Shown here piece by piece: positions 16,639 to 64,000 of a stretch of DNA of 64,000 bases. The DNA lies in assembly GCA_015146655.1 (NCBI GenBank), contig VKHL01000125.1:21935-85934 (forward strand), given 5' to 3'. The notes under the pieces were generated by a model. The model saw nothing but the letters and a program-made list of their open reading frames with translations. It made no database searches and was not told the DNA's origin. This DNA comes from Ochromonas danica. Taxonomy: Eukaryota; Sar; Chrysophyceae; Chromulinales; Chromulinaceae. The position numbers were made by a program, and so were the translations under genes. Each line of letters starts with the position of its first letter. The stretch's first letter is position 1.

Positions 16639-18585
16639 ATGGGTGCAGGTGCATTAAGTCAAATCCCCATGCATATTGACAAAGCCACCTTCCGTCAGTT
16701 ATCTGGTGGAACAATCAATGATGCTATCTTTGATGCCAATGCTGAACATGGTATAATGACAAGAGATCGTCTAATTGAACTCTCACATATGCGAGATTGT
16801 TACATTTCTTGTGATTCTGGTGCTGTGGATGTCTATGGACGGAATATACATGAACGTGTTCGTGCCATTGGTGCTGGATTAAAGGCAAAAGGTCTTTTAA
16901 TTTGGTTCAATGAAGAGCCTATCACCAAAGATACTGTTATCACTCATGTTTGTGCTGGTATTGATCGATCTCGTAGTATGCTTTGCTTCTTCACCAAGTC
17001 ACTGTTTGACAGGATTATGAGTGCTGTGCCAAACGAACACTGTGCTTTAGAGTTCAACTATACAATTTCAAAGAAACATCCTGACTATATTATCCCTGTT
17101 GTGTGTGAAGAACAACTACTAGATCCTGCTACATGGCCTGGTAGTATTGGTCTTGCTTTAGGCCAGGCTTCATTCCTCAATTTCGTCGATGACAACAATT
17201 GGGATGCTAAGATTGATGATCTATATCGAAGAATTGTGAAGATATCCAAAGCTGGCGAGAATTTGTTTGCTGTCGATGGTGTCAAGCATGTCACATTGTT
17301 ATCACAAACCAATAAATCAAAAGAAGAGCAACAGTTCTTTCAATGGCTTGCTCGTTCAACTAATATCGATGAAAGTCGACGAATAATTTATTGTACTTCT
17401 TTTGTTCGAGCAGGTGTGAATAATGTTTTCACGCTTGCTAAAATGATGAATGCTCAACCAACATTTTTGACGTCGATTGGTCTAGCAGAGGCTGATGCGG
17501 ATCAGATTGCTTTAGCAGTGCGAGACCTAGGATTGGGTTATGTTCCTGTGCGAGAATTTGATAAAGCCCTGACAATTGAGAGTGTCGTCTATGCCTTACG
17601 GAAGGCTAGTCAACAGGCCGAAGATCCTACATTAACCGAAAACGCTCTTGCATGTGCTGCTCGTATTGCAGCCTCCAACAAAATTATGCCCACGGTAATG
17701 AGTGATGCTGGCATTGGAGAAGCAGTCCTTAAGCTGATGCAACATCATCTTGCTCATGCACCTTCTATGGAACAAGGCTGCTTGACGGTTTTTAATATGA
17801 CTGTTCATAATCCAGACATTGGAGAAAAAATGGGAGCCTTGAATGCTTGCGATATTCTACCACGAACAATTCGAAGTCATCCTAATAACCTTGCGGTCAT
17901 CCACAATGGATGTTGTGCTATTGCTTCATTGGCAGTATCATCAGACAATCGTCAACGATTTTGCTATACAGGAGCGTGTGATGTCGTCATTAAAGTGGTC
18001 AAGAATGCTCTACAAGCTCCTGAGGTTGTGGCCAAATGCTTTCTGGCAGCGAACCGACTTGGCGAGCATCATCAAGAAAATGTGAGCAAATTAGGGCTTG
18101 CTGGTGCTTGCGATGCGATTGTTGCAGGCTTACAACAGCATTATGGAGACCCTCAAGTTGTTGATCAGGCTTTCCGCTTAATTCTCATTCTGTCTGTGGA
18201 ACCATCTAATCGGACTGTTTTGGGTCAAGAAAGCTGTTGTAAATCGTTTGCACAGGCATTGGGATGTCAAAATGATCATGCTGACATTGTGCAAGCTGGC
18301 TGCCATGCTATTGCTTCAGTAATCATGGGAAATGCTTATAATCGCAGTGTGTTTTCTAAAGTGGGCACTTGTGAAATTGTTCGAGATAGCATCCTGAAGC
18401 ATCCATTTAATCTAGGCACTTTACACGGTGCAAGTCGAGCAGTCTTCGCTTTATCGGCTGGAACACTTGAAAACAAGCACAAATTTCAAGGAATCCAACC
18501 TATTCTCCAACAAGCCCTGGCTCAGAATCCACAACTACCTGAACCAGTTAAGAATGACTTCAAAGCTGCTCTATCTAAAGTTTAA
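16639..18585 (+). CDS. TIR domain - SAM-like - armadillo-repeat protein
   Basis: Single-exon 648-residue protein with three parts. Residues about 53-205 look like a TIR domain: DCYISCDSGAVD (strand A), GLLIWFNEEPI (strand B/BB loop region), IDRSRSMLCFFTKSLF, then NEHCALEFNYTI and IIPVVCEEQ. The Glu of CALEF (residue 138) sits where NAD-cleaving TIR domains keep their catalytic glutamate. Residues about 228-300 resemble a SAM domain (FFQWLARS...FLTSIGLAEADADQIALAV). Residues about 335-640 are helical repeats of armadillo type (for example HNGCCAIASLAVSSDNRQRF, VQAGCHAIASVIMGNAYNRS). SARM1, the animal NAD hydrolase, has the same modules in the opposite order. Enzymatic activity is inference; it could instead be a scaffold. 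The domain boundaries are my reading only. Confidence 0.7.
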   Translation: MGAGALSQIPMHIDKATFRQLSGGTINDAIFDANAEHGIMTRDRLIELSHMRDCYISCDSGAVDVYGRNIHERVRAIGAGLKAKGLLIWFNEEPITKDTVITHVCAGIDRSRSMLCFFTKSLFDRIMSAVPNEHCALEFNYTISKKHPDYIIPVVCEEQLLDPATWPGSIGLALGQASFLNFVDDNNWDAKIDDLYRRIVKISKAGENLFAVDGVKHVTLLSQTNKSKEEQQFFQWLARSTNIDESRRIIYCTSFVRAGVNNVFTLAKMMNAQPTFLTSIGLAEADADQIALAVRDLGLGYVPVREFDKALTIESVVYALRKASQQAEDPTLTENALACAARIAASNKIMPTVMSDAGIGEAVLKLMQHHLAHAPSMEQGCLTVFNMTVHNPDIGEKMGALNACDILPRTIRSHPNNLAVIHNGCCAIASLAVSSDNRQRFCYTGACDVVIKVVKNALQAPEVVAKCFLAANRLGEHHQENVSKLGLAGACDAIVAGLQQHYGDPQVVDQAFRLILILSVEPSNRTVLGQESCCKSFAQALGCQNDHADIVQAGCHAIASVIMGNAYNRSVFSKVGTCEIVRDSILKHPFNLGTLHGASRAVFALSAGTLENKHKFQGIQPILQQALAQNPQLPEPVKNDFKAALSKV

Positions 18586-18762
18586 AATAGGATGCGAATA
18601 ATAGTTTAAATATTAACACTATCACTACTGCATACAGTTATAGCAATAGAAAGAAGCTGTCTACTGCTAAGAAAATTCATTGATAACTGTTGGGGAGTTG
18701 TACCGAGCTTTCCACAAACTCCATAATAAAGAACGTCTCAGCTCAAAGATGTCATTGATTGT

Positions 18763-20124
18763 TTACTTATTGTTGACTCTCAAAGCTGCCAAGCGCTCAG
18801 TAATTCTTGCGTTCTTATTGTTCACACGACCACTGTCCATACTCTGACTGCGACCACCATAAGCAGCTGCTGGCTGTGTTTTGAATGGGATCGCATGCTC
18901 AGGCCCCTCCTGATCACCATCTTCAAACCATTCGTGAGATGCAGCCATGGCACCAGCTTCAAAAGGAACCCCACTAGTTGTGGACACTGTGCGTCTGCCA
19001 CGCCAACCATAAGAATCAACCGTGTATTGAGGATCATTGCGAGAGCGATGAAGGAAGTCAGAGAAGGAGCTTCTACGATTAACTGGCTGAGAAGCTTGAG
19101 ACCCAGTCAACCAAGCAGTCAAGCTGCGTGTCCAAGGCTCGTTAACACTGGTGGTACGAGGAGGAGGAATAGAAAATGAGTGGCGTTGTTGACGCTCAAG
19201 TTCATGAGCCAGCATTTCTTCTTTCGCTTTATGCTCCAACTCTTTAAATACAGCATTGATCTCGGACAATGGGCTATAGTTGTCAGCTTCCGTACTGTGA
19301 TGAACATCTTCTTGAATGGAGCGCTCACTATGATGGCCAACACGTTTGAAACGGATATCATAAGTGGTCTGATTCTCAGTGATAAAGGGATCAGAGTTAA
19401 GATGCATATCTAGATCCGCCATTTGGCCTTCGCCTAAAATAACTTCTTCAGCGGGCTTCTCTTCTATGTTGATGTGCTCTCGTACAGTTGCAACAAGCTT
19501 ATCAGCACAAACTTGTTTCAGGACAGGATAAACCAACATGAGAAATGCATCCCGGAGAACTTTCGAAACACGAGTGACTTGAATACCAGCAGGATATCCG
19601 CTTCCCTCAGTTTTCTTCAAGCTCTTAGCCCAGGCAATGAAGTAATCTCTCTACACGAAGAAACATTAAAAGACAGTTAAAATGTCAATAATACCGTTCC
19701 TCCTTCATGAACCATAAAATCGACCAAAACCTCTCACCTTTGCCTCATCATCAGACCATGTGGACAGCACATTCCGCACCACAGGAGAGTCAATTCCAAA
19801 GGATGGAACATGAGTGTCTTCAGCATAGGGCATCCATTCGGAAATCTTCTCATCACTTTCTTTCTTTTCAGAACTCTCACGCTGTAAACCATTCTTCTTA
19901 GCATGCCTTTTCAACCTACTGATCGCATCAAGGATGCGAGAATTGATTATGCCATAAGTCTCTTCAGTGAGGCTGTCTAATTTGATCTCTTTTTCTTCAA
20001 TATCAAGTGCATCAAGCGTAGCTTGTAACAGCTTGACATAGAGAAGAGGGGTAATAGAAGCAGCGGGAGAAGCTTTTTCTCCGTCCAATTGAAGCAGGTC
20101 AGCAATTTCTCCGGTGGTTGTCAT
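18763..20124 (-). CDS. Unrecognised two-exon protein
   Basis: I do not recognise this protein. Exons 19738-20124 and 18763-19650 join across an 87 bp GT-AG intron to give 424 residues. The N-terminal third looks helical and charged (LLYVKLLQATLDALDIEEKE, then ISRLKRHAKK), leading into WAKSLKKTEGSGYP across the exon junction. The middle has a helical segment (SEINAVFKELEHKAKEEML), and the C-terminal 170 residues are Ser/Arg/Gly-rich and probably disordered. There is no signal peptide or membrane segment. It converges on the TIR-ARM gene (177 bp between stops) and diverges from WDR60. A second, broken copy of its 3' end lies at 59749-59913 and 63898-64000, showing that the gene was duplicated. 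Confidence 0.75.
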
Positions 20125-25437: not shown

Positions 25438-25902
25438 ATGACCTGTAATCAATTACCTCCTTTATTTGAATCCGTACGAAGAAATATGCTTAAAATTAGC
25501 GGACAACACCTTGATTGAAATTTTTGAGCGGAGGAGAGAAATTCTACTAGAGCACAGGTGAGCTTCAAATTTGCCAAAATACATTAAAGATGATTTTTAT
25601 GATTTAACTTGACATGCAAAGAAGATGAAGGACTTTGATTTGGATCGTTTATCCGCGGAGAAGAAACCAGATCCTCGAGATTGGAAAGGTTTTCTGCTGT
25701 CAGTAGTAAATCTCGCCTTCCGAGCCGTGGGATCGGAGAGGCTGCCTCAGGATATCACTATCGAGTTAATGAAAGTGAAGTTCGAAGATTTGGACTATGA
25801 GGGTAAGTATTACTTCAGAGATTTACTGGAAGAAGAGTGGAAAGTACTATTGGACTACCATAACTATCTCCAGACCTCCTTACACTATGTGAAAGGAAAA
25901 TT
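25438..25902 (+). pseudogene. Truncated copy 1 of the 26459-28582 gene family
   Basis: Partial copy of the adjacent gene. It starts with an aligned ATG (residues NQLPPLFES versus DQLPPLSEC in the full copy), but a 2 bp insertion shifts the frame to a stop at about 25516. A segment equivalent to about 50 codons is missing before base 25578, and a TGA replaces AGA in the DLT-R-HAKK stretch. From 25578 to 25895 the DNA is almost identical to 26684-27001 of the full copy, with only two differences seen. It then ends abruptly after the HYVK codons. An open frame of 105 codons from 25625 remains, so expression of a fragment is possible but not shown. Confidence 0.8.
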
Positions 25903-25942
25903 ATTCTCTTTTCTTGCTCGCGATTCTGAGTGTGAGTTTTGA

Positions 25943-26458
25943 CAATGTGGCAAGCAATATTCTAACGACAATAATATTGCGGAGTTTTATCCTGTCTAAA
26001 TGCATTTTGGAGATATGGTGACTGACAGTGAGGTCGTAATTACACTGGAGTATTAATTGACATTCTCTGGCACTGAAAACTATATCGTCTTCTAATATAG
26101 GCAAGACATGTCGTTTCCAGCGGGCCAATTGTTCGATTTGTGAATATTTCTGATCTTCGTCCCTTTCCAATATTTTCATATTTCATTATTTTCACATTTC
26201 AATATGTATTTTTATATTTTATTATTTCAATATATTTCCATCCATGTTGTACAAGACTAACAAGATTGAACAAGTTATTATAAAAGCGTAGGGAGGGACG
26301 AATTGTTGTTATGGCCTGGTGGAAGTGGTGGTTGGGAGTACGCTTGGCCACGCAGGCAGGCCGCCCAGCAGCAGCTCACCTCGCGAAAAACGTCTTTTTT
26401 TGAGGTGCCGCCACTCGCACTCAAAAACTCTCACCATCAGAACTGATGACCAAGAAGC
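25943..26458. other. Spacer between copy 1 and copy 2
   Basis: 516 bp, very AT-rich around 26180-26250, more GC-rich near 26330-26400. A 92-codon minus-strand frame (25901-26179) has a protein-like composition but matches nothing I recognise and overlaps the end of the pseudogene. The last 80 bp would be the copy 2 leader. Confidence 0.35.
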
Positions 26459-28582
26459 ATGAAGCGTGATCAACTTCCTCCTTTATCTGAATGCTGCCAA
26501 GATAAATATATAAAAATAGTGGACAAAACGCTGATTGATATTTTAAGACATGGGGAGAAGCAACGAGTCCTTTGTAAATCTCTCGAATATTTAAAATGGG
26601 ATAGCTGTGAGAAACGTTCCGAGTATTACAAAGTGCTCATGGAGGTTTATATGGATTTGTCAATCTACATTAAAGATGATTTTTATGATTTAACTAGACA
26701 TGCAAAGAAGATGAAGGACTTTGATTTGGATCGTTTATCCGCGGAGAAGAAACCAGATCCTCGAGATTGGAAAGGTTTTCTGCTGTCAGTAGTAAATCTC
26801 GCCTTCCGAGCCGTGGGATCGGAGAGGCTGCCTCAGGATATCACTATCGAGTTAATGAAAGTGAAGTTCGAAGATTTGGACTATGAGGGTAAGTATTACT
26901 TCAGAGATTTACTGGAAGAAGAGTGGAAAGTACTGTTGGACTACCATAACTATCTCCAGACCTCCTTACACTATGTGAAAGCTGATACGAATGATCTGCC
27001 TTTGATGGAGAGCTCAGCATTTCTAGCGGGAATTTACAAATGTCTTCAAGGCAGCTTCAAGAGTCTCGGCAAGGAAGCTAAACGACTTCATATTATCTAC
27101 AAAGAGTTGATCAAAGGACAGGAGAAGCCTAGTAGAAAAGTCAAGGGTTCTGAACAAGCATCTTTGCTGTCCATGATACCTCGGACAATCAGTTCTCATG
27201 ATCTAGATGATTGGGAAATTGCAAACGTTCTTTGTAATATGGCATCCATGCCTTTGGAGGAATATTTGAATGATCATGACGATAATGACAACGAAAGCGT
27301 AGATTCAAACGAGTTCTCTGGTCCGATTGGAGGCTTCACGGAAACAATAAAACCTTATGTGAAGAAGGACTCTTCAACGACAGCTCTTCCTCCAGGCAAT
27401 AAAGTGATGGAAATGCTACATACCTTCAACGGAACAAGTGGCGCTTCTTATCAGCATGAGCTACCCAAAGGAGTATATCTCCCAAAGGAGTATCTCCAGC
27501 CTAACAGCAATAAACGCCCTGGGGTGTGGTACAATGAACCATCAATATATGCCCCAACGGTGAAGCGCAGAAGAGAGGAAACCCAGGGAAATGATAGGAG
27601 AGGCATGAAGGATGTGGATGGTGATGATTACGCTGACGATGAAAGCATTGATTCAAATACAAAACTGGAACATATTGGAAGCTTCACAGAAGCAATTAAA
27701 AGCGAGGTGACCAAAGACCCTTCAGTGGCAGTTCTTCCTGAAGATACTACAGTGTTGTGGATGATTCATTCACTTCATCATTCTTCTTCTTCTCAGTATA
27801 AGGAGCCCAAAGCTACGATTGCCAAGCAGAAGAGAACGAAAGAAGATCTTCCAAAGGGGGTTCTTCAATCGGACAGCAAGAAGCACTCGATCAGCCGTGC
27901 ACGGGGCCAGTCGTCTGAAAATGTCATTCAGGAGAAACGCATGGAAGAAGACCAGGGAAATGATAGGGAAGGCAAGAAGAATGCTGATAGTGATGCGATC
28001 GGTAAGGAGGGTCTCAAACTAACATGCCTGAACGGAGGCAGTAAGGAAGCTTTCGCTCCCTTGCCGAGGGAGAATCTACCCAAATTGGAGTGCGATTATT
28101 CTATGATGCCGGAGTCGTTAAAAACTCTTGCTGAGTCGGGTGTTTCTTCTTCTCACTATGAGGAACCTAAAGCTATGATTGTCAAAGAGGAGAAAACAAA
28201 AGAAGATCCTCCGAAGGAGTCTCGTCAGTCTGACAGCAAGAAACGCCTAATTGACGTAGCTTGGTACAATCAAACATCTACAAACGAGAAACGCAGAGGA
28301 GATACAGACGAGGTAAACGAGAGTGAAGGCAAGAAGAATGTTGATCAAGGTGGCGTGAACCTTGTCAAATATCCTTCTCCGATAGGAGATATCACTGAGC
28401 CACTCCCTGGGGTGAAATCATCCAATGAGAAGACAACAACTGTGAAAAATTGTCTCACAGCTAGTGATGTTGTTCCAGGCGCAGCTATCGTTTCTCGAGA
28501 AAATTCTTTGTTGGAGTTGGGATGTGCGGAAAAAACCTCGAATGATAGGATAGATCACATTACCCTTCCTCTCTCAAAGTGA
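26459..28582 (+). CDS. Unrecognised family protein, copy 2 (full length, with internal repeats)
   Basis: I do not recognise this 707-residue protein. Residues 1-235 form a predicted helical, charged N-terminal domain with paired cysteines (SECCQDKYIKIVD, RVLCKSLEYLKWDSC). Its core is WKGFLLSVVNLAFRAVGSER...YFRDLLEEEWKVLLDYHNYL, identical in all three copies in this window. After residue about 240 the chain is hydrophilic. From about residue 279 it is built of imperfect tandem units of about 116 residues, each with S-(V/I)-DSN, an IG-x-FTE-x-(I/L) motif, a KDxS...LP segment, QSDSKK(R/H) and a GND-R-x-GKK end. There is no signal peptide or membrane segment. Single exon. Copy 3 (60322-61707) shares the N-terminal domain and one repeat unit and lies beside a transposase, so a mobile-element link is possible. 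Confidence 0.75.
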   Translation: MKRDQLPPLSECCQDKYIKIVDKTLIDILRHGEKQRVLCKSLEYLKWDSCEKRSEYYKVLMEVYMDLSIYIKDDFYDLTRHAKKMKDFDLDRLSAEKKPDPRDWKGFLLSVVNLAFRAVGSERLPQDITIELMKVKFEDLDYEGKYYFRDLLEEEWKVLLDYHNYLQTSLHYVKADTNDLPLMESSAFLAGIYKCLQGSFKSLGKEAKRLHIIYKELIKGQEKPSRKVKGSEQASLLSMIPRTISSHDLDDWEIANVLCNMASMPLEEYLNDHDDNDNESVDSNEFSGPIGGFTETIKPYVKKDSSTTALPPGNKVMEMLHTFNGTSGASYQHELPKGVYLPKEYLQPNSNKRPGVWYNEPSIYAPTVKRRREETQGNDRRGMKDVDGDDYADDESIDSNTKLEHIGSFTEAIKSEVTKDPSVAVLPEDTTVLWMIHSLHHSSSSQYKEPKATIAKQKRTKEDLPKGVLQSDSKKHSISRARGQSSENVIQEKRMEEDQGNDREGKKNADSDAIGKEGLKLTCLNGGSKEAFAPLPRENLPKLECDYSMMPESLKTLAESGVSSSHYEEPKAMIVKEEKTKEDPPKESRQSDSKKRLIDVAWYNQTSTNEKRRGDTDEVNESEGKKNVDQGGVNLVKYPSPIGDITEPLPGVKSSNEKTTTVKNCLTASDVVPGAAIVSRENSLLELGCAEKTSNDRIDHITLPLSK

Positions 28583-47042: not shown

Positions 47043-50000
47043 TCAAATACCTTCTTGACCTTTTGTAGAAGGTGACAGATCTCCTCCTTCATTATTAATA
47101 CGTAACTTGGAGAAGTCATCATCTAAGAAGGTTGCCATGACTAACAAAGCTTTGTCATCATCTGAATCAACTGTAGCTTGTATAGCAGAACGGAGATATT
47201 GTTCCAATCCAAGTCTACGATTATCATCTACAGTTGGTCCACGATAGAATGGTTTCACTCGACTCTTGGCAGGTAACTATACCACACCATACAATGTCAA
47301 TGCCAATGCCAATGAAAAACAAGGTTAGCGTAAGTGTATAGTGTAGTGTAAGTGCAGTATAGTGTATATGCATATAAAGTATGTTAGACAAGTGTAGTAT
47401 GTAGTGTATAGAGTATAGAGTAGTGTAAGTGTAGTGTATAATAGTGTATATATATAGTTAGATGAGTTAGACAAATGTAATGTATAGTGTAGTGTACATA
47501 TACAGTATGTTAGACAAGTTAGACAAGTGCAGTATATAGTATATAGTGCAGTGTGTAGTGTATATATACAGTATGTTAGTCAAGTTAGACAAGTGTAGTA
47601 TATAGTATATAGTGTAGTATGTAGTGTATATATACAGTATGTTAGACAAGTTAACTTACCCCAACATCTGCTTTAATTCCTTCTTTCAATAATTGTTTTT
47701 GAAGTTGTTCAAATTCACGATAACGTTTAGTAATTTGCCATGAATCACCTCCATGATTAATATCAATAATATATCGTACAATAGTACCACCTATAGCAGC
47801 TTTTTCAACATTTCCCACTAATCCACCAATATTACCACTATTGCCATTATTACCAGTATTGCCACCAATATTACCACTATTGCCACTATTACCAATATTG
47901 CCACTTTCCTTCCCACTCACTCCTTCTTCCACACTTTCATCACTTATCGTAGCCGTGGCAGTGTTAGTGATAGTAGCTTGATTAGATGGCATAATAATAA
48001 CACCTACCATACTACTTTCTCGACCTAGTCGACTAGTTGTTTCATTCTCTTCACATAGAATCATCTTGGGTATATTAATTGTAATAGTTGCACCAAAGAG
48101 TGACCAGGATCCAGCTGTACCTGATTTACCAGGGAAACGATAGACATAACCTGGTTGAATGATGAAACGACGAAAAGATGATGAGGTAGTGGTAAGATCT
48201 CCTCCTCCTCCACCACCACCACCACCTGAACCATTTCCTACCATTAAAGAGGATCGAACATCATCAACGGCTAGTTCACCATCTAGTCCTGCTACCCTTT
48301 CAATTTCTTCTACATCACCTTCATCACCTCCTCCTCCTTCTTTGTCTTCAAACCCATCACAAACAGTCATTAATAACTTACAATTAACTAATTCTTGTCC
48401 AATTGCACATGCTTCTATACGATCTCTTGCTATACCTACTACATCATTATCTGCTGCTATTGATCCAAAATTATTCTTCATTAACCAAACAACCACATCA
48501 TCACCTGAAATTACACCTTCAAATAGTCGACAACGTATAGCAATATCATGTGGTTTTAATCGTATTCTCATTTGCATAAAGAGTTTTCTCCATTTCTCAC
48601 GTCCAGAGGATTGCATTGAAGTCATTACATTATATTCTGCAGCTCCCATAAGAGATTGTTCACGACGATCATCATAGGATAATAAGGATGATGAAGGATG
48701 AAGATTGTCATCATGATGACGGAGATGTTGTTGTAGTTGTTGTTGCTGTTGTTGTTGTTCTATTATCATCATCTTAACAAGTGTATGTATAGATAAGAAG
48801 TCTTGTACTTGTGGTAATTGATATAATTTAGGTGTACGTAGAATTGATGACAAATACACTATTTACACAATCATTAGTCTATTAGAGGAAGCAAGTTAAG
48901 TTAAGAGCAGTTGGTAACTTACATGTAATAGATCGCATATCCATGTTAAGTTCAGCATTTGTGAGATTATGTGTTAATTCAATTTGTGCAGATTTTAATC
49001 TTGGACGACGTGGTGCATAATCTCCTTCTAAACTGACTAAAGCTGCATGTAGTCGTAATAGCTCACTTGCTGTATGCCATACTGTACTACGATGACTATT
49101 ATGACTCGTCCCTCCTACACTACTACCACCACCACTACCATTACCATTACCACTACTACCCATCATCATACCACGACGTGTAGTTACATCTCCTTGATCA
49201 AATCCATTAGTACTACTATTACCCACACCTGCAGTATTGTTGTTATTATTGTTGTTATTATTGTTGTTGTTGTTGTTGCCACTACTACTACCCATCATAA
49301 TACTATTACTGTCAGTTGGTAAATGCTGACCACGAAGAGTAACTTCAATTTCAAACTCTACCTCATTATCAACAGAAGTGGAAGCTACGGTACCACTACC
49401 ACTACCACTACCACTACCTTTCGACACCTCCGAGGTAGGAGAAGCAGTCATAAGACGACTAGCTAAGCTATCACCACCAAGAGCAAGAGCTGCAGAGCTA
49501 CTATCTCTCTCATCAGATTCTCTTCGTAGACTATAATGTCGATTACTGCGTATTCCCCAACGAGATACTACTACCTGCCAGACAGAAGCTCTTCGTTGTT
49601 CCCAAGCATCAGATGCTTCTATTCCTCCATTTCTACCCTTTGTTGAAGTAAACGAGACATTACTACCACTACCACTACCTTTTGGTTCAACCATAGGATT
49701 TAATGCATTGACTTTAGCACGATGTTGATCCATGACTTGTAATAAGGCTCGACTCATCGTGCTGGAGTTAGAAGACAGACTTGAACTTCTCTCTCCTAGC
49801 CCTCCTCCTCCTCCTCCTCCACCACCATCGGAAGAGTTAGTAAAGGATTCCTTTGGATGATATGTCTGTAAGGAGACATCATCTTCAAGGAAGGAAGAAG
49901 GCCTCATATCACTGTCATCGTCACTCTTGCGACCACTTAAACGATACCAGAAAGACCACCAACCAGACTCATGCTTTGAAGAGGAGCCATCAACACCTCC

Positions 50001-50990: not shown

Positions 50991-51504
50991 TTAGAGAGAG
51001 AGAGAGGGGTTTATTCTATGATTAGAATACAATGAGGGGTTTGATTAGACTAGAACAGAGAATCAATTGAGATTGAAGGAAAAGCAGGCAGGAAGGAAGA
51101 AAAGTCGTAGTGAATGCTCAATGAAACCATAAATTACTAGTTTTAACCACCACTCAGTTCCTCGATGCATCCAAAGCCAAAAGTCCATTAACTTAAGAGG
51201 ATAATTAACTTAAGAGGATAGTTAACTTAAGAGGATAGTTAACTTTAGAGGATAATTAGCTTAAGAGGACAGTGAACTTAAGAGGATAGTTAACTTAAGA
51301 GGTGTATCACTGCCAAGTGTGTGTGTTTCTCGCTGGTTTGATCAACCTCAACAACAATAACAATAACAACAATAAACAACAATTAACACATTTAAACTAA
51401 GCTCTCTTTGACTTGTGGTCTCTCTTTAGCTTGCTTTTACTGACTATAAGAGAAGATACCTATTGACCTCAATATTCATCTTATTAAATCATCATCATCA
51501 TAAT
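50991..51504. promoter_or_regulatory. Divergent intergenic region with a 17 bp tandem array
   Basis: Between the PX-DEP start and the Sec14-like start. 51188-51302 holds about seven copies of a unit close to TTAACTTAAGAGGATAG. A poly-purine GAGA run lies next to the PX-DEP ATG (50994-51006). A TATAAGAG word at 51445 is 60 bp before the + strand ATG. Confidence 0.55.
51188..51302. repeat. Tandem repeat, about 17 bp unit x 7
   Basis: Unit TTAACTTAAGAGGATAG with single-base variants (GATAATT, GACAGTG). Each unit contains the palindrome CTTAAG. Position 200-300 bp upstream of the Sec14-like gene. Confidence 0.9.
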
Positions 51505-59748: not shown

Positions 59749-59913
59749 TTTCTCTTTTCCTCACACCTTCATTGTTAATGAGTCTTGGACATGCGGCTTG
59801 ACTGCATGGTTGACTGGATCTCAATCTTCTCAGCCTACTAATCGTAGAAGCTCCTTCTCAGACTTCCTTCATTGTTTTCGCAATGATCCTCAATACACTG
59901 TGGGTTCTTGATC
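59749..59913 (+). pseudogene. Fragment A of a paralogue of the 18763-20124 gene
   Basis: About 165 bp that match, on the + strand, the coding sense of the intact gene from the SFSIPPPR region to RNDPQYTV, at roughly 85-90 percent by eye. Shared words include CTTCTCAGCC, AATCGTAGAAGCTCCTTCTC and CGCAATGATCCTCAATACAC. The match ends sharply at about 59913, and the paralogue resumes some 4 kb further on at fragment B. Small indels break the frame at its start. Confidence 0.8.
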
Positions 59914-60321: not shown

Positions 60322-61707
60322 TTAGGATAGGGAAGCAGGATTTGTAAACATATCATACATCGTAAAATAACCAACACGCGATTCTTGCTCGGTTGCTTCA
60401 TCATCCGTTTCCTTCTTTGCTTCCCAGCAAGATCGTGAAAAGCTTTGGGCATCTTCTTGTCCCATGTTGGTTAAAATGAGCGCCTTTCTCTGTCTAACTG
60501 GAGAGAGATCCTCGGCAGGTCGTTTTTTTGGTCTCTCCTGTTTTTCATCCTGACAATACGAAGAACCACTTGTTCCATTGAAGGTATGTAGCATTTCCAT
60601 CACTTTATTGCCTGGAGGAAGAGCTGTCGTTGAAGAGTCCTTTTTCACATAGGGTTTGATTGCTTCTGTGAAGCCTCCAATCGGACCAGATAATTCGTCT
60701 GAATCTACGCTTTCGTAGTTATTATCATCATGATCATTCAAAGTCTTATCAGTATAATCGTCAAGATCAGTACAATCCATATCAGTACAATCTTCGATAT
60801 TCACATGGAAATCCTTAGCCGAATCACGATGAGTAATTACACGCTTCTTAGAGACTGACTGGTGAGACTCCTTCGCATCATTATTATTATCATTTGATGT
60901 TGTTGTTGATGATGATGATGATGATGATGACGACGACGACGACGATTTCATCAACTCTTCGTGAGATGGAAGCTCTGAAGAGACGACAGGAACAGGCTTT
61001 TCTTCTGAACCCTTGACTTTTCTGCTAGGCTTCTTCTCCTGACCTTTGGTCAACTCATTATAGATAATATGAAGTCGTTTGATCTCCGCTCCGAGACTCT
61101 TGAAGCTGCCTTGAAGACATTTGTGAATTCCCGCTAGAAATGCTGAGCTCTCCATCAAAGGCAGATCATTCGTATCAGCTTTCACGTAGTGTAAGGAGGT
61201 CTGGAGATAGTTATGGTAGTCCAACAGTACTTTCCACTCTTCTTCCAGTAAATCTCTGAAGTAATACTTACCCTCATAGTCCAAATCTTCGAACTTCACT
61301 TTCATTAACTCGATAGTGATATCCTGAGGCAGCCTCTCCGATCCCACGGCTCGGAAGGCGAGATTCACTACTGACAGCAGAAAACCTTTCCATTGACGTG
61401 GTTCTAGTTTCTTCTCCGGATTGTCGGATAAACGAGTCAAATCAAAGGCCTTCATCTTCTTTGCATGTGCTGTTAAGTCATAGTGTCCATCTATGAAGTA
61501 GTTTGGCAAAGCCTCTAAAACCTCCAGTAATAGTTTATGATATTCGATGCGATTGAGACAGCCATTCCATTTCAGGTGTTCGTAAGATTTACAAAGAACT
61601 CGTGGATTCTCTGTTGTGCCGCAAAGACCAATCAGCTTTTCATCCACTTGTTCAATATATTTCTTTTGGCAACATTTTGATGGAAGAAGCTTTTCATCAA
61701 GTGTCAT
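60322..61707 (-). CDS. Unrecognised family protein, copy 3
   Basis: 461 residues, single exon, same family as 26459-28582. The N-terminal 110 residues are recognisably related but diverged (CCQKKYIEQVDEKLIG against CCQDKYIKIVDKTLID; RVLCKSYEHLKWNGC against RVLCKSLEYLKWDSC). From WKGFLLSVVN to FKSLG the protein is identical except for one residue, and the DNA differs at only a few bases. A poly-Ser/Asp linker follows (not in copy 2). Then a block GPIGGFTEAIKPYVKKDSS to EMLHTFNGTSG is again near-identical in DNA. The C-terminus is unique (KKRPAEDLSPVRQRKALI, ending MYDMFTNPASLS). It has one repeat unit where copy 2 has three or more. Lies 203 bp downstream of the transposase stop on the same strand. 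Confidence 0.75.
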   Translation of the reverse strand: MTLDEKLLPSKCCQKKYIEQVDEKLIGLCGTTENPRVLCKSYEHLKWNGCLNRIEYHKLLLEVLEALPNYFIDGHYDLTAHAKKMKAFDLTRLSDNPEKKLEPRQWKGFLLSVVNLAFRAVGSERLPQDITIELMKVKFEDLDYEGKYYFRDLLEEEWKVLLDYHNYLQTSLHYVKADTNDLPLMESSAFLAGIHKCLQGSFKSLGAEIKRLHIIYNELTKGQEKKPSRKVKGSEEKPVPVVSSELPSHEELMKSSSSSSSSSSSSSTTTSNDNNNDAKESHQSVSKKRVITHRDSAKDFHVNIEDCTDMDCTDLDDYTDKTLNDHDDNNYESVDSDELSGPIGGFTEAIKPYVKKDSSTTALPPGNKVMEMLHTFNGTSGSSYCQDEKQERPKKRPAEDLSPVRQRKALILTNMGQEDAQSFSRSCWEAKKETDDEATEQESRVGYFTMYDMFTNPASLS

Positions 61708-61910: not shown

Positions 61911-63344
61911 CTACTTAGATTTTCTTTCACGTTTCTTCTTGTTTGTGGGACCAGGCTCAAAGTTCTCTCGTTCTTCACCAAGAGCTGGACTCACATTTCT
62001 GCTTTGGAAAGCTATCCTTCCTTGGCCAAAGGCTTGCCCCCTTTTTCTTTTTACAGCTTCAAGAATAGCCTCAAACTCTCTTAAGACCGAAGCTGATCGA
62101 AGGGGCACGTCTCTATTGATTGGCCACAAGCCTGTGCGTTCCCAAGAAGTCTTGATCGGTAGAGGGGAATCTGCTGTTCGCAGACAATCAGCAAGAATTT
62201 GCAGATTGTGGTCCCTTCTTGTACCTGCATCTTCATTTTGACTTTGATTGTCTTCTTTGCTCTTTTGAGAGTAATACAGCTGCTTGAAGTGAAGATTTAC
62301 TCCGAGATCAAGCGGCTGGAGCAGGTGCGATGAATGGGCAGGAATAAAGAGGATTTCAATACCATTAGCCTCGAAATTTTCATGTTGCTCAATGATTGCA
62401 TTTCGCGAGCTGTGATTGTCGAGGATCAAGAGCGCTCGACGGTCTCCTAATCCATGTGTTTCTCGGATTTTCTTAACATCTTCAATAAATCCTTTAATAA
62501 GCACATTCTTCAGAATTTCGCCTGTGATAAACCCAGTTGACGACCCGGCAAGATTGAAAGCGCTCACAACACTGTCAGATAGAGTAGGGAAGGTCTTGAG
62601 AGGTAAAATTAGAAGAGGAGTTAGCAATTTGCCCGCTGCGCTGATAGTCAATAAAATAGTAGCGTAGTATGTTTGTCATTTTCCAACTCATCTTTTCATA
62701 CCGATCAAAGAACTCCCTAATAGTTGCAGCAGGAAGCAGCCGCTTCTAGCAGAGCGCATCGATACATTCAAAATCAAAAATCAAATTGCAAATTGGTCAC
62801 TGATAACGACTCTACGGGTCACTTACTTTCTCCATCGGCCGGGGTACGCGGACTCGAATCCCGTGCGCCTTAAGCATTGCCCTAGCAACTCCGGGGGTTA
62901 CCTCATGATAGGTTTCTAAATGTTGTTGCCGATGCACCTTCTGGATACTATTTGCCTGAAAATGAGGAAGGTTATTATGTGGAGATTCGACTTCAACACC
63001 GTGCTTACAATGTTTGCGGCCACTTTGTAAGTGACCGGAACTCCATTATCAGCCTCTCGCTGACACTCTTCTAAGAATTGTTGCTTTTCCTCTTTATTCA
63101 AGTGAGATGGATGCCCAACAACGCCCAAATCTCTTCCTTCTGAGTCTGCTTTCAAAGCTCCTTCAACAGCTGCCCTAGTCAAAGAAACCGCAGATGCAGC
63201 CTTCTGATGGCTGAAATGGTACTCATTTACAAGTTTTACAGCTTGATGATGTGGTGAAAGACCTCGAAATTCACTCGTACCGAGCAGCAGTCGAGGATCT
63301 TCCAATCTTTCCCCCCTGGCGGTGTTGTCAGGAAAGCAGCACAT
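61911..63344 (-). CDS. pogo/Tigger-like DDE transposase, probably incomplete
   Basis: Four exons can be read: 63009-63344, 62827-62955, 62702-62745 and 61911-62640, with introns of 53, 81 and 61 bp that start GTAAGC, GTAAGT and GTATGA and end in CAG, TAG and CAG. The joined frame is open for about 412 residues. The N-terminal part has a helix-turn-helix region (QAVKLVNEYHFSHQKAASAV) and a second helical DNA-binding region (VTPGVARAMLKAHGIRVRV). The C-terminal part is DDE_1: AAGKLLTPLLILPLK, LLILDNHSSRNAI (second catalytic Asp in LDNH), LFIPAHSSHLLQPLDLGV (third acidic residue). A segment with the first catalytic Asp, expected just before AAGKLL, is not seen, so this copy is probably inactive. 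The start is uncertain; the open frame extends to 63383. A Lys/Arg-rich tail (KKKRERKSK) ends it. Confidence 0.65.
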
Positions 63345-63897: not shown

Positions 63898-64000
63898 CAA
63901 AGTATGAACCGTGGCCGTGTGAGCAATAAGAACGCAAGAATTACTGAGCGCTTGGCAGCTTTGAGAGTCAACAATAAGTAAACAATCAATGTCATGAGAG
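63898..64000 (+). pseudogene. Fragment B of the paralogue of the 18763-20124 gene (runs off the window)
   Basis: About 100 bp matching the last codons and stop of the intact gene at about 95 percent by eye: the words AATAAGAACGCAAGAATTAC, TGAGCGCTTGGCAGCTTTG and AGAGTCAACAATAAGTAAAC are shared exactly with the reverse complement of 18756-18838. The reading GRVSNKNARITERLAALRVN versus GRVNNKNARITERLAALRVN includes the same stop codon. Same orientation and order as fragment A. The copy continues past the window edge. Confidence 0.85.

What the first reader, a model, noticed from the sequence alone, without database searches (positions are those of the whole stretch)
25438..28582. Gene family with near-identical DNA cores but diverged ends
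Three copies (25438-25902, 26459-28582 and, 34 kb away, 60322-61707 minus) share a core of about 300 bp, from the codons for WKGFLLSVVN to FKSLG in copies 2 and 3, with only a handful of differences. Silent positions are identical too. The N-terminal 110 codons of copies 2 and 3 are only about half identical in protein. A second short block (GPIGGFTE to FNGTSG) is again near-identical. Identity at silent sites inside blocks, next to strong divergence, points to gene conversion or block shuffling rather than simple constraint.
Basis: seen in the sequence. Interest (0 to 1): 0.75.

Follow-up and report, generated by a model that had tools for sequence, protein, structure and literature searches.

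The report
Copy-pasted core in diverging sister genes
Sister genes in a small-genome microbe share an almost identical DNA stretch although the rest of each gene has drifted far apart, best explained by one copy overwriting the matching stretch of another, a well-known kind of DNA exchange.

Summary
The window has three related copies (relic c1, c2, c3) and another contig of the same unnamed 31.2-Mb genome a fourth (c4). Silent divergence falls from pS 0.39-0.56 in the first 104 codons to 0.05-0.13 in a 100-codon core (0 of 10,000 permutations for each of three pairs). Tract borders are sharp and differ by pair. Relic c1 carries 316 bp with 2 differences from c2 (three edge differences set outside the tract), about 100 bp of it in sequence that is diverged in c3 and c4; silent-site constraint does not explain that. 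Best explanation: ectopic gene conversion, persisting in the core because it is the conserved domain of a wider family (seven distant loci) and stays similar enough to recombine. The second block is a clear tract only for c3/c4, weak for c2/c3. High GC3 in the core fits GC-biased conversion but is not diagnostic. No Pfam, NCBIfam or PDB match was found for the members scanned; function is unknown. A clean new example of a known process.

The parts
25439..25895 (+). c1: decayed copy; diverged, frame-shifted N-terminal remnant followed by a recent tract from c2; no C-terminal part found
   Evidence: (two TGA); its 3' flank 25897-26440 matched only itself in the genome by DNA
25580..25895 (+). 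c1 conversion tract, 316 bp, 2 differences from c2 (25610, 25849); at both, c1's base is in none of c2, c3, c4; only at 25849 do the other three agree
   Evidence: left border set by me after three differences at 25574-25579
26459..28582 (+). c2: 707-aa open reading frame
26666..26981 (+). part of c2 that matches the c1 tract
26768..27069 (+). c2 core tract shared with c3 (3 differences in 302); with c4 the tract runs 26770-27108 (10 in 339)
   Evidence: change-point fit; core found at 4 places
27265..27451 (+). c2 second block (GPIGGFTE...FNGTSG): 187 bp at 92% to c3; 134 bp of it at 95.5% to c4
27326..28345 (+). c2 C-terminal imperfect tandem units (codons 290-311/406-427, 376-389/499-512, 443-474/563-594, 492-510/610-629; offsets about 116-123 codons)
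60322..61707 (-). c3: 461-aa open reading frame
61091..61392 (-). c3 core tract (counterpart of c2 26768-27069, by the codon alignment)
60556..60742 (-). c3 second block; 139 bp of it 97% identical to c4
59758..59909 (-). fragment downstream of c3, 85.5% to window 19011-19162 (part of a neighbouring minus-strand gene)
63898..64000 (-). another copy of that neighbour gene's 3' end at the very end of the contig (98 bp at 94% to 18749-18846)

Best explanation
c1-c4 are old paralogues of a family with no named domain, known here only from this genome. Short stretches have been copied non-reciprocally between them (ectopic, interlocus gene conversion), mainly inside the conserved domain core and, between c3 and c4, also in a second short block, so that silent sites were reset there while the flanks kept diverging. 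Shown: sharp, pair-specific drops in silent divergence; alignment in register on both sides of the core; a fresh c2-like tract inside a decayed copy. Inferred: the non-reciprocal copying itself; the direction c2 to c1; the role of a similarity threshold, under which the constrained core keeps the identity needed for strand exchange while the flanks (N-terminal DNA about 66-74% identical) have escaped it; a possible GC bias of repair.
For: pS core against N-term: c2/c3 0.047 v 0.391, c2/c4 0.110 v 0.561, c3/c4 0.126 v 0.496; 0 of 10,000 permutations each. Piecewise-constant fits find 6, 5 and 6 segments with borders that differ by pair; 59 of 60 site shuffles stay at one segment, 1 gives three. 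The closest pair changes along the gene: c2/c3 at nt 201-312 (23 sites v 11 and 6) and in the core's nt 401-618 (9 v 5 and 1), c2/c4 at nt 619-660 (5 v 3 and 0), c3/c4 in block 2 (9 v 4 and 0; the two ranges summed share one position). c1 is a relic, yet its tract differs from c2 at 2 of 316 sites. Tracts of about 300 bp fit published values: most estimates 50 to several hundred bp, conversion mainly above 80% identity though possible below (PMC3924818, passages seen). Core GC3 0.52-0.54 against 0.37-0.43 in the N-term of the same three copies; 0 of 182 overlapping 100-codon windows from 13 other ORFs of the window reach 0.53.
Against: No orthologues from a sister species were available, so direction and dates are inferred; c2-to-c1 rests on the decay of c1 and on one clearly polarised site (25849). 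The silent-codon run test is not significant for c3/c4 (379 of 5000). N-terminal relationships are only weakly resolved (31 v 23 v 20 sites). Beyond the core some short stretches also have low pS (c2/c4 codons 205-232 0.12 on 15 codons; c3/c4 codons 233-270 0.10 on 12 codons), and the tails align poorly, so borders there are uncertain. High GC3 is not diagnostic: distant paralogues L015 and L017, for which no tract was sought, have ORF GC3 0.53 and 0.58, and c2 codons 451-550 are as high as the core. The genome is a draft; c4 starts 158 bp from its contig end and c3 lies 2.3 kb from its own.
Confidence: 0.86

Rival explanations
1. Nucleotide-level purifying selection: silent sites of the core are held by an overlapping function (RNA structure, antisense gene, regulatory site).
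For: The core is also the part best conserved as protein in distant paralogues (6 of 10 invariant columns of the 8-row alignment lie in it), so constraint of some kind acts there.
Against: The relic c1 keeps the sequence, and its tract includes about 100 bp outside the common core that is diverged in c3 and c4. Borders differ by pair. Predicted RNA folding of the core is no better than shuffles: z 0.55 on + (140 of 200 shuffles fold at least as well) and -0.51 on - (57 of 200). No Rfam family in the window at the gathering cut-off.
Confidence: 0.04
2. Assembly artefact: the cores were duplicated or blended by the assembler.
For: c4 begins 158 bp from its contig end and c3 lies 2.3 kb from the end of C125; near-identical repeats of 300 bp can mislead short-read assembly (general knowledge). 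How this genome was sequenced is not known here.
Against: Each core has its own differences (c2/c3 3 in 302, c2/c4 10 in 339, c3/c4 10 in 297; c1/c2 2 in 316), and the matches in c2, c3 and c4 hold no stops.
Confidence: 0.05
3. Insertion or exon shuffling: a recent core piece was inserted into diverged or decayed genes rather than converted in place.
For: c1 loses homology right at the 3' end of its tract. Fragments of a neighbouring gene lie next to c3, next to c4 and at the contig end, and the tail of c2 has tandem units, so DNA blocks do get copied about in this region.
Against: In c2, c3 and c4 both sides of the core align in register with the other copies, and c1 aligns in register on its left side, as expected for replacement of an existing homologous stretch.
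Confidence: 0.05

Closest known systems
Interlocus (ectopic) gene conversion between duplicated genes, general (reviews PMC3924818, PMC3924837; passages seen)
   Same: Tract of a few hundred bp, low divergence in the tract and high outside, mainly where identity exceeds 80%; uneven divergence along a duplicate pair.
   Different: Here low-divergence islands sit on the family's conserved domain in otherwise diverged genes; the opsin example in PMC3924837 is the reverse, a peak of divergence in a homogenised pair.
Recombination or gene conversion among RXLR effector paralogues of Phytophthora ramorum (PMC3820680, passages seen)
   Same: Multigene family of a eukaryotic microbe with recombination between paralogues, repeat gain or loss and a truncated copy; relationships among copies change along the gene.
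   Different: Nothing here links these proteins to RXLR effectors; no tool looked for an RXLR motif or secretion signal, and no host interaction is suggested by these data.
Blastocystis duplicated gene blocks (PMC3129679, passages seen)
   Same: Conversion was proposed there as one possible reason for the high identity of copies.
   Different: There paralogous blocks of several adjacent genes average 99% identity in coding regions; here only short stretches within genes are near-identical.

Membership tests
Interlocus gene conversion | Silent divergence much lower inside a bounded tract than in adjoining aligned sequence | tested here: met
   0 of 10,000 permutations for each of three pairs
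Interlocus gene conversion | Sharp tract borders that differ between pairs of copies | tested here: met
   the 5' borders of the core lie within a few bases of each other, the 3' borders and the c1 borders differ
Interlocus gene conversion | Homology in register on both sides of the tract | tested here: met
   for c2, c3 and c4; c1 only on the left side
Interlocus gene conversion | Relationships among copies switch along the gene | tested here: met
   informative-site counts; N-terminal part weakly resolved; no trees or bootstraps were made
Interlocus gene conversion | Homogenisation also in sequence not under selection | tested here: met
   relic c1; that c1 is without function is inferred from its stops and missing parts
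Interlocus gene conversion | Paralogues within a genome closer than orthologues between species in the tract | not testable with these tools
   no relatives of this genome are held (note)
GC-biased gene conversion | Raised GC at silent sites of the converted tract | tested here: inconclusive
   GC3 0.52-0.54 in the core against 0.37-0.43 in the N-term, 0 of 182 overlapping windows of 13 other ORFs; but two distant paralogues and part of the c2 tail are as high
Known protein domain family (Pfam, NCBIfam, PDB) | Significant profile or sequence match | tested here: not met
   Pfam: c2, c3 and five distant paralogues, only sub-threshold hits; NCBIfam: c2, c3, L015, L019, only sub-threshold hits; PDB with profiles A1 and A2, best E 0.52. 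c4 and loci L030, L032 were not scanned against Pfam or NCBIfam

The most novel reading that the evidence does not exclude
The pattern is maintained by selection and not only by chance similarity: a protein family in which conversion keeps a shared interaction core uniform while N- and C-terminal parts are free to diversify and re-order their modules, as in recognition or regulatory repertoires, with GC-biased repair raising GC in the exchanged core.
Probability: 0.1. Interest if true: 0.55.

Novelty: new member of a known kind. Interest (0 to 1): 0.3.

Why it matters
It is a compact, well-bounded case in which conversion can be told from constraint without a second species, because a decayed copy carries a fresh tract. 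It warns that trees or ages built from the conserved domain of this family would be wrong. If the GC3 peak is due to biased repair, these copies could serve to test it in a compact, probably eukaryotic genome.

Tried and rejected
Rejected or led nowhere: RNA structure in the core (no better than shuffles); relatives of the 102-aa c2 core in viral contigs (8 pattern matches, 0 confirmed) and in prokaryote genome contigs (60 pattern matches, 0 confirmed); solved structures by profile (none; one hit at E 0.52, taken as chance); Pfam and NCBIfam, only sub-threshold hits. The structure prediction from a two-row alignment has mean pLDDT 44.8, all helical, and was judged unusable, so no fold search was run. 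The organism could not be identified: the ribosomal RNA family search did not complete. Rfam on the window found nothing at gathering thresholds and ARAGORN no tRNA. Paper searches gave listings; passages of four papers were read, no paper as a whole.

Full report
What is there. The window is part of contig C125 of an unnamed 31.2-Mb genome of 337 contigs. Its size and some of the domains found in 9 ORFs scanned (TIR, Dak1/Dak2, DDE_1, choline transporter) suggest a small eukaryote; this is inference, as the ribosomal RNA search that could have named the group did not complete. Four closely related copies were found: c1 (window 25439-25895 +), c2 (26459-28582 +, 707 aa), c3 (60322-61707 -, 461 aa) and c4 (G000:C13:321872-323230 -, 453 aa). 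A search with the core alone found these four places; the tool says that its counts are lower bounds.

The pattern. Over the first 104 codons of c2 the pairs differ at silent sites with pS 0.391 (c2/c3), 0.561 (c2/c4) and 0.496 (c3/c4). Over the next 100 codons the values are 0.047, 0.110 and 0.126, and replacement divergence pN falls from 0.25-0.29 to 0.004-0.017. Shuffling codons between the two regions never gave so large a difference in pS (0 of 10,000 for each pair). Piecewise fits put the core tract at window 26768-27069 for c2/c3 (3 of 302), 26770-27108 for c2/c4 (10 of 339) and 61390-61094 for c3/c4 (10 of 297), with more diverged sequence on both sides; 59 of 60 shuffles of the sites gave a single segment and one gave three. 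The longest identical run passes a shuffle test for all three pairs (0 of 2000 each). The longest run of unchanged silent codons passes for c2/c3 (0 of 5000) and c2/c4 (60 of 5000) but not for c3/c4 (379 of 5000).

The second block. Its silent divergence is 0.027 for c3/c4, 0.191 for c2/c4 and 0.232 for c2/c3. It is a clear tract for c3/c4.

Why conversion and not constraint. Protein constraint does not lower silent divergence, and three further facts speak against silent-site constraint. First, c1 is a relic: it has two TGA stops in its matched stretch, a frame shift and a 66-column gap in its N-terminal remnant, and no recognisable C-terminal part. Yet 316 bp of it differ from c2 at only two sites. 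I set the left border after three differences at 25574-25579; with them the match is 327 bp with 5 mismatches. At both sites c1's base is found in none of the other copies; at 25849 c2, c3 and c4 agree, while at 25610 c2 differs from c3 and c4 too, so only the first is cleanly polarised. Second, the tract reaches 102 bp upstream of the common core into sequence that is diverged in c3 and c4. Third, the 3' border differs by pair: c2 and c4 stay near-identical past the point where c3 departs. The closest pair also changes along the gene, though the N-terminal part is weakly resolved (31 v 23 v 20 sites). Predicted RNA folding of the core is unremarkable on both strands.

Why conversion and not pasting. 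In c2, c3 and c4 the sequence on both sides of the core aligns in register, as does the left side in c1. Pasting or duplication does occur nearby. Pieces of the minus-strand gene at 18749-20124 lie downstream of c4 (241 bp, 97%) and of c3 (152 bp, 85.5%), in the same orientation relative to c4 and c3, and at the very end of the contig (98 bp, 94%), where no c gene is known. That suggests an old duplicated unit of 'c gene plus neighbour tail', and perhaps a fifth copy just beyond the contig end (inference). The c2 tail holds imperfect tandem units about 116-123 codons apart, and a 24-bp module that follows the core in c2 and c3 follows block 2 in c4 (0 of 100 codon-shuffled c2/c4 pairs gave any hit at E 0.01).

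Why in the core. Seven further loci encode distant relatives, 26-41% identical to c2 or to the relative on C203 over the matched parts (C203, C101, C25, C53, C126; C42 and a second place on C25 only by way of the C203 protein). In an alignment of five of them with c2, c3 and c4, 6 of 10 invariant columns lie in the core and 2 more just after it. Published work puts conversion mainly above 80% identity, possible below, and most tract estimates at 50 to several hundred bp (PMC3924818, passages). The core is above that level and the N-terminal flank below it (about 66-74%), so the simplest account is that selection keeps the domain similar, similarity keeps conversion going there, and the flanks have escaped. 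This last step is inference.

GC bias. GC3 of the core is 0.52-0.54, against 0.37-0.43 in the N-terminal part of the same three copies. In 182 overlapping windows of 100 codons from 13 other ORFs of the window the mean is 0.25 and none reaches 0.53 (I picked the ORFs from the long ones, and not all need be genes). This fits GC-biased conversion but does not prove it: two distant paralogues have ORF GC3 of 0.53 and 0.58, and codons 451-550 of c2 are as high as the core.

What the protein does. Unknown. No match above threshold was found in Pfam (c2, c3 and five distant relatives), NCBIfam (c2, c3 and two relatives) or PDB sequences (two profiles); c4 and two distant loci were not scanned against Pfam or NCBIfam. 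The predicted model is of too low confidence to use (mean pLDDT 44.8, all helical). N-terminal dN/dS of roughly 0.36-0.59 (from: 0.325/0.552, 0.372/1.033, 0.306/0.811) shows weak constraint and no sign of positive selection on average; the tails align too poorly to judge.

Verdict. It is a good example of a known process in a family that matched no library searched here.

Noticed in passing
window 18749-19162; 59758-59909; 63898-64000; G000:C13:321454-321694: Fragments of a minus-strand gene (18749-20124) are copied downstream of c3, downstream of c4 and at the contig end; a fifth c copy may lie beyond the contig end.
   Followed up: partly
window 61911-62651 (-): DDE_1-type transposase ORF (Pfam PF03184, E 3.1e-14) about 200 bp upstream of c3.
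   Followed up: no
window 26459-28582 and 60322-61707: GC3 of c2, c3 and c4 parts (0.36-0.54) is above that of 13 other ORFs of the window (windows average 0.25).
   Followed up: partly
window 16639-18585 (+): A 648-aa ORF with a TIR domain match (PF13676, E 2.9e-8) and weak armadillo-repeat matches below their cut-offs.
   Followed up: no
window 47357-47904 and 51187-51302: Short tandem or nearby repeats seen in the self-comparison.
   Followed up: no
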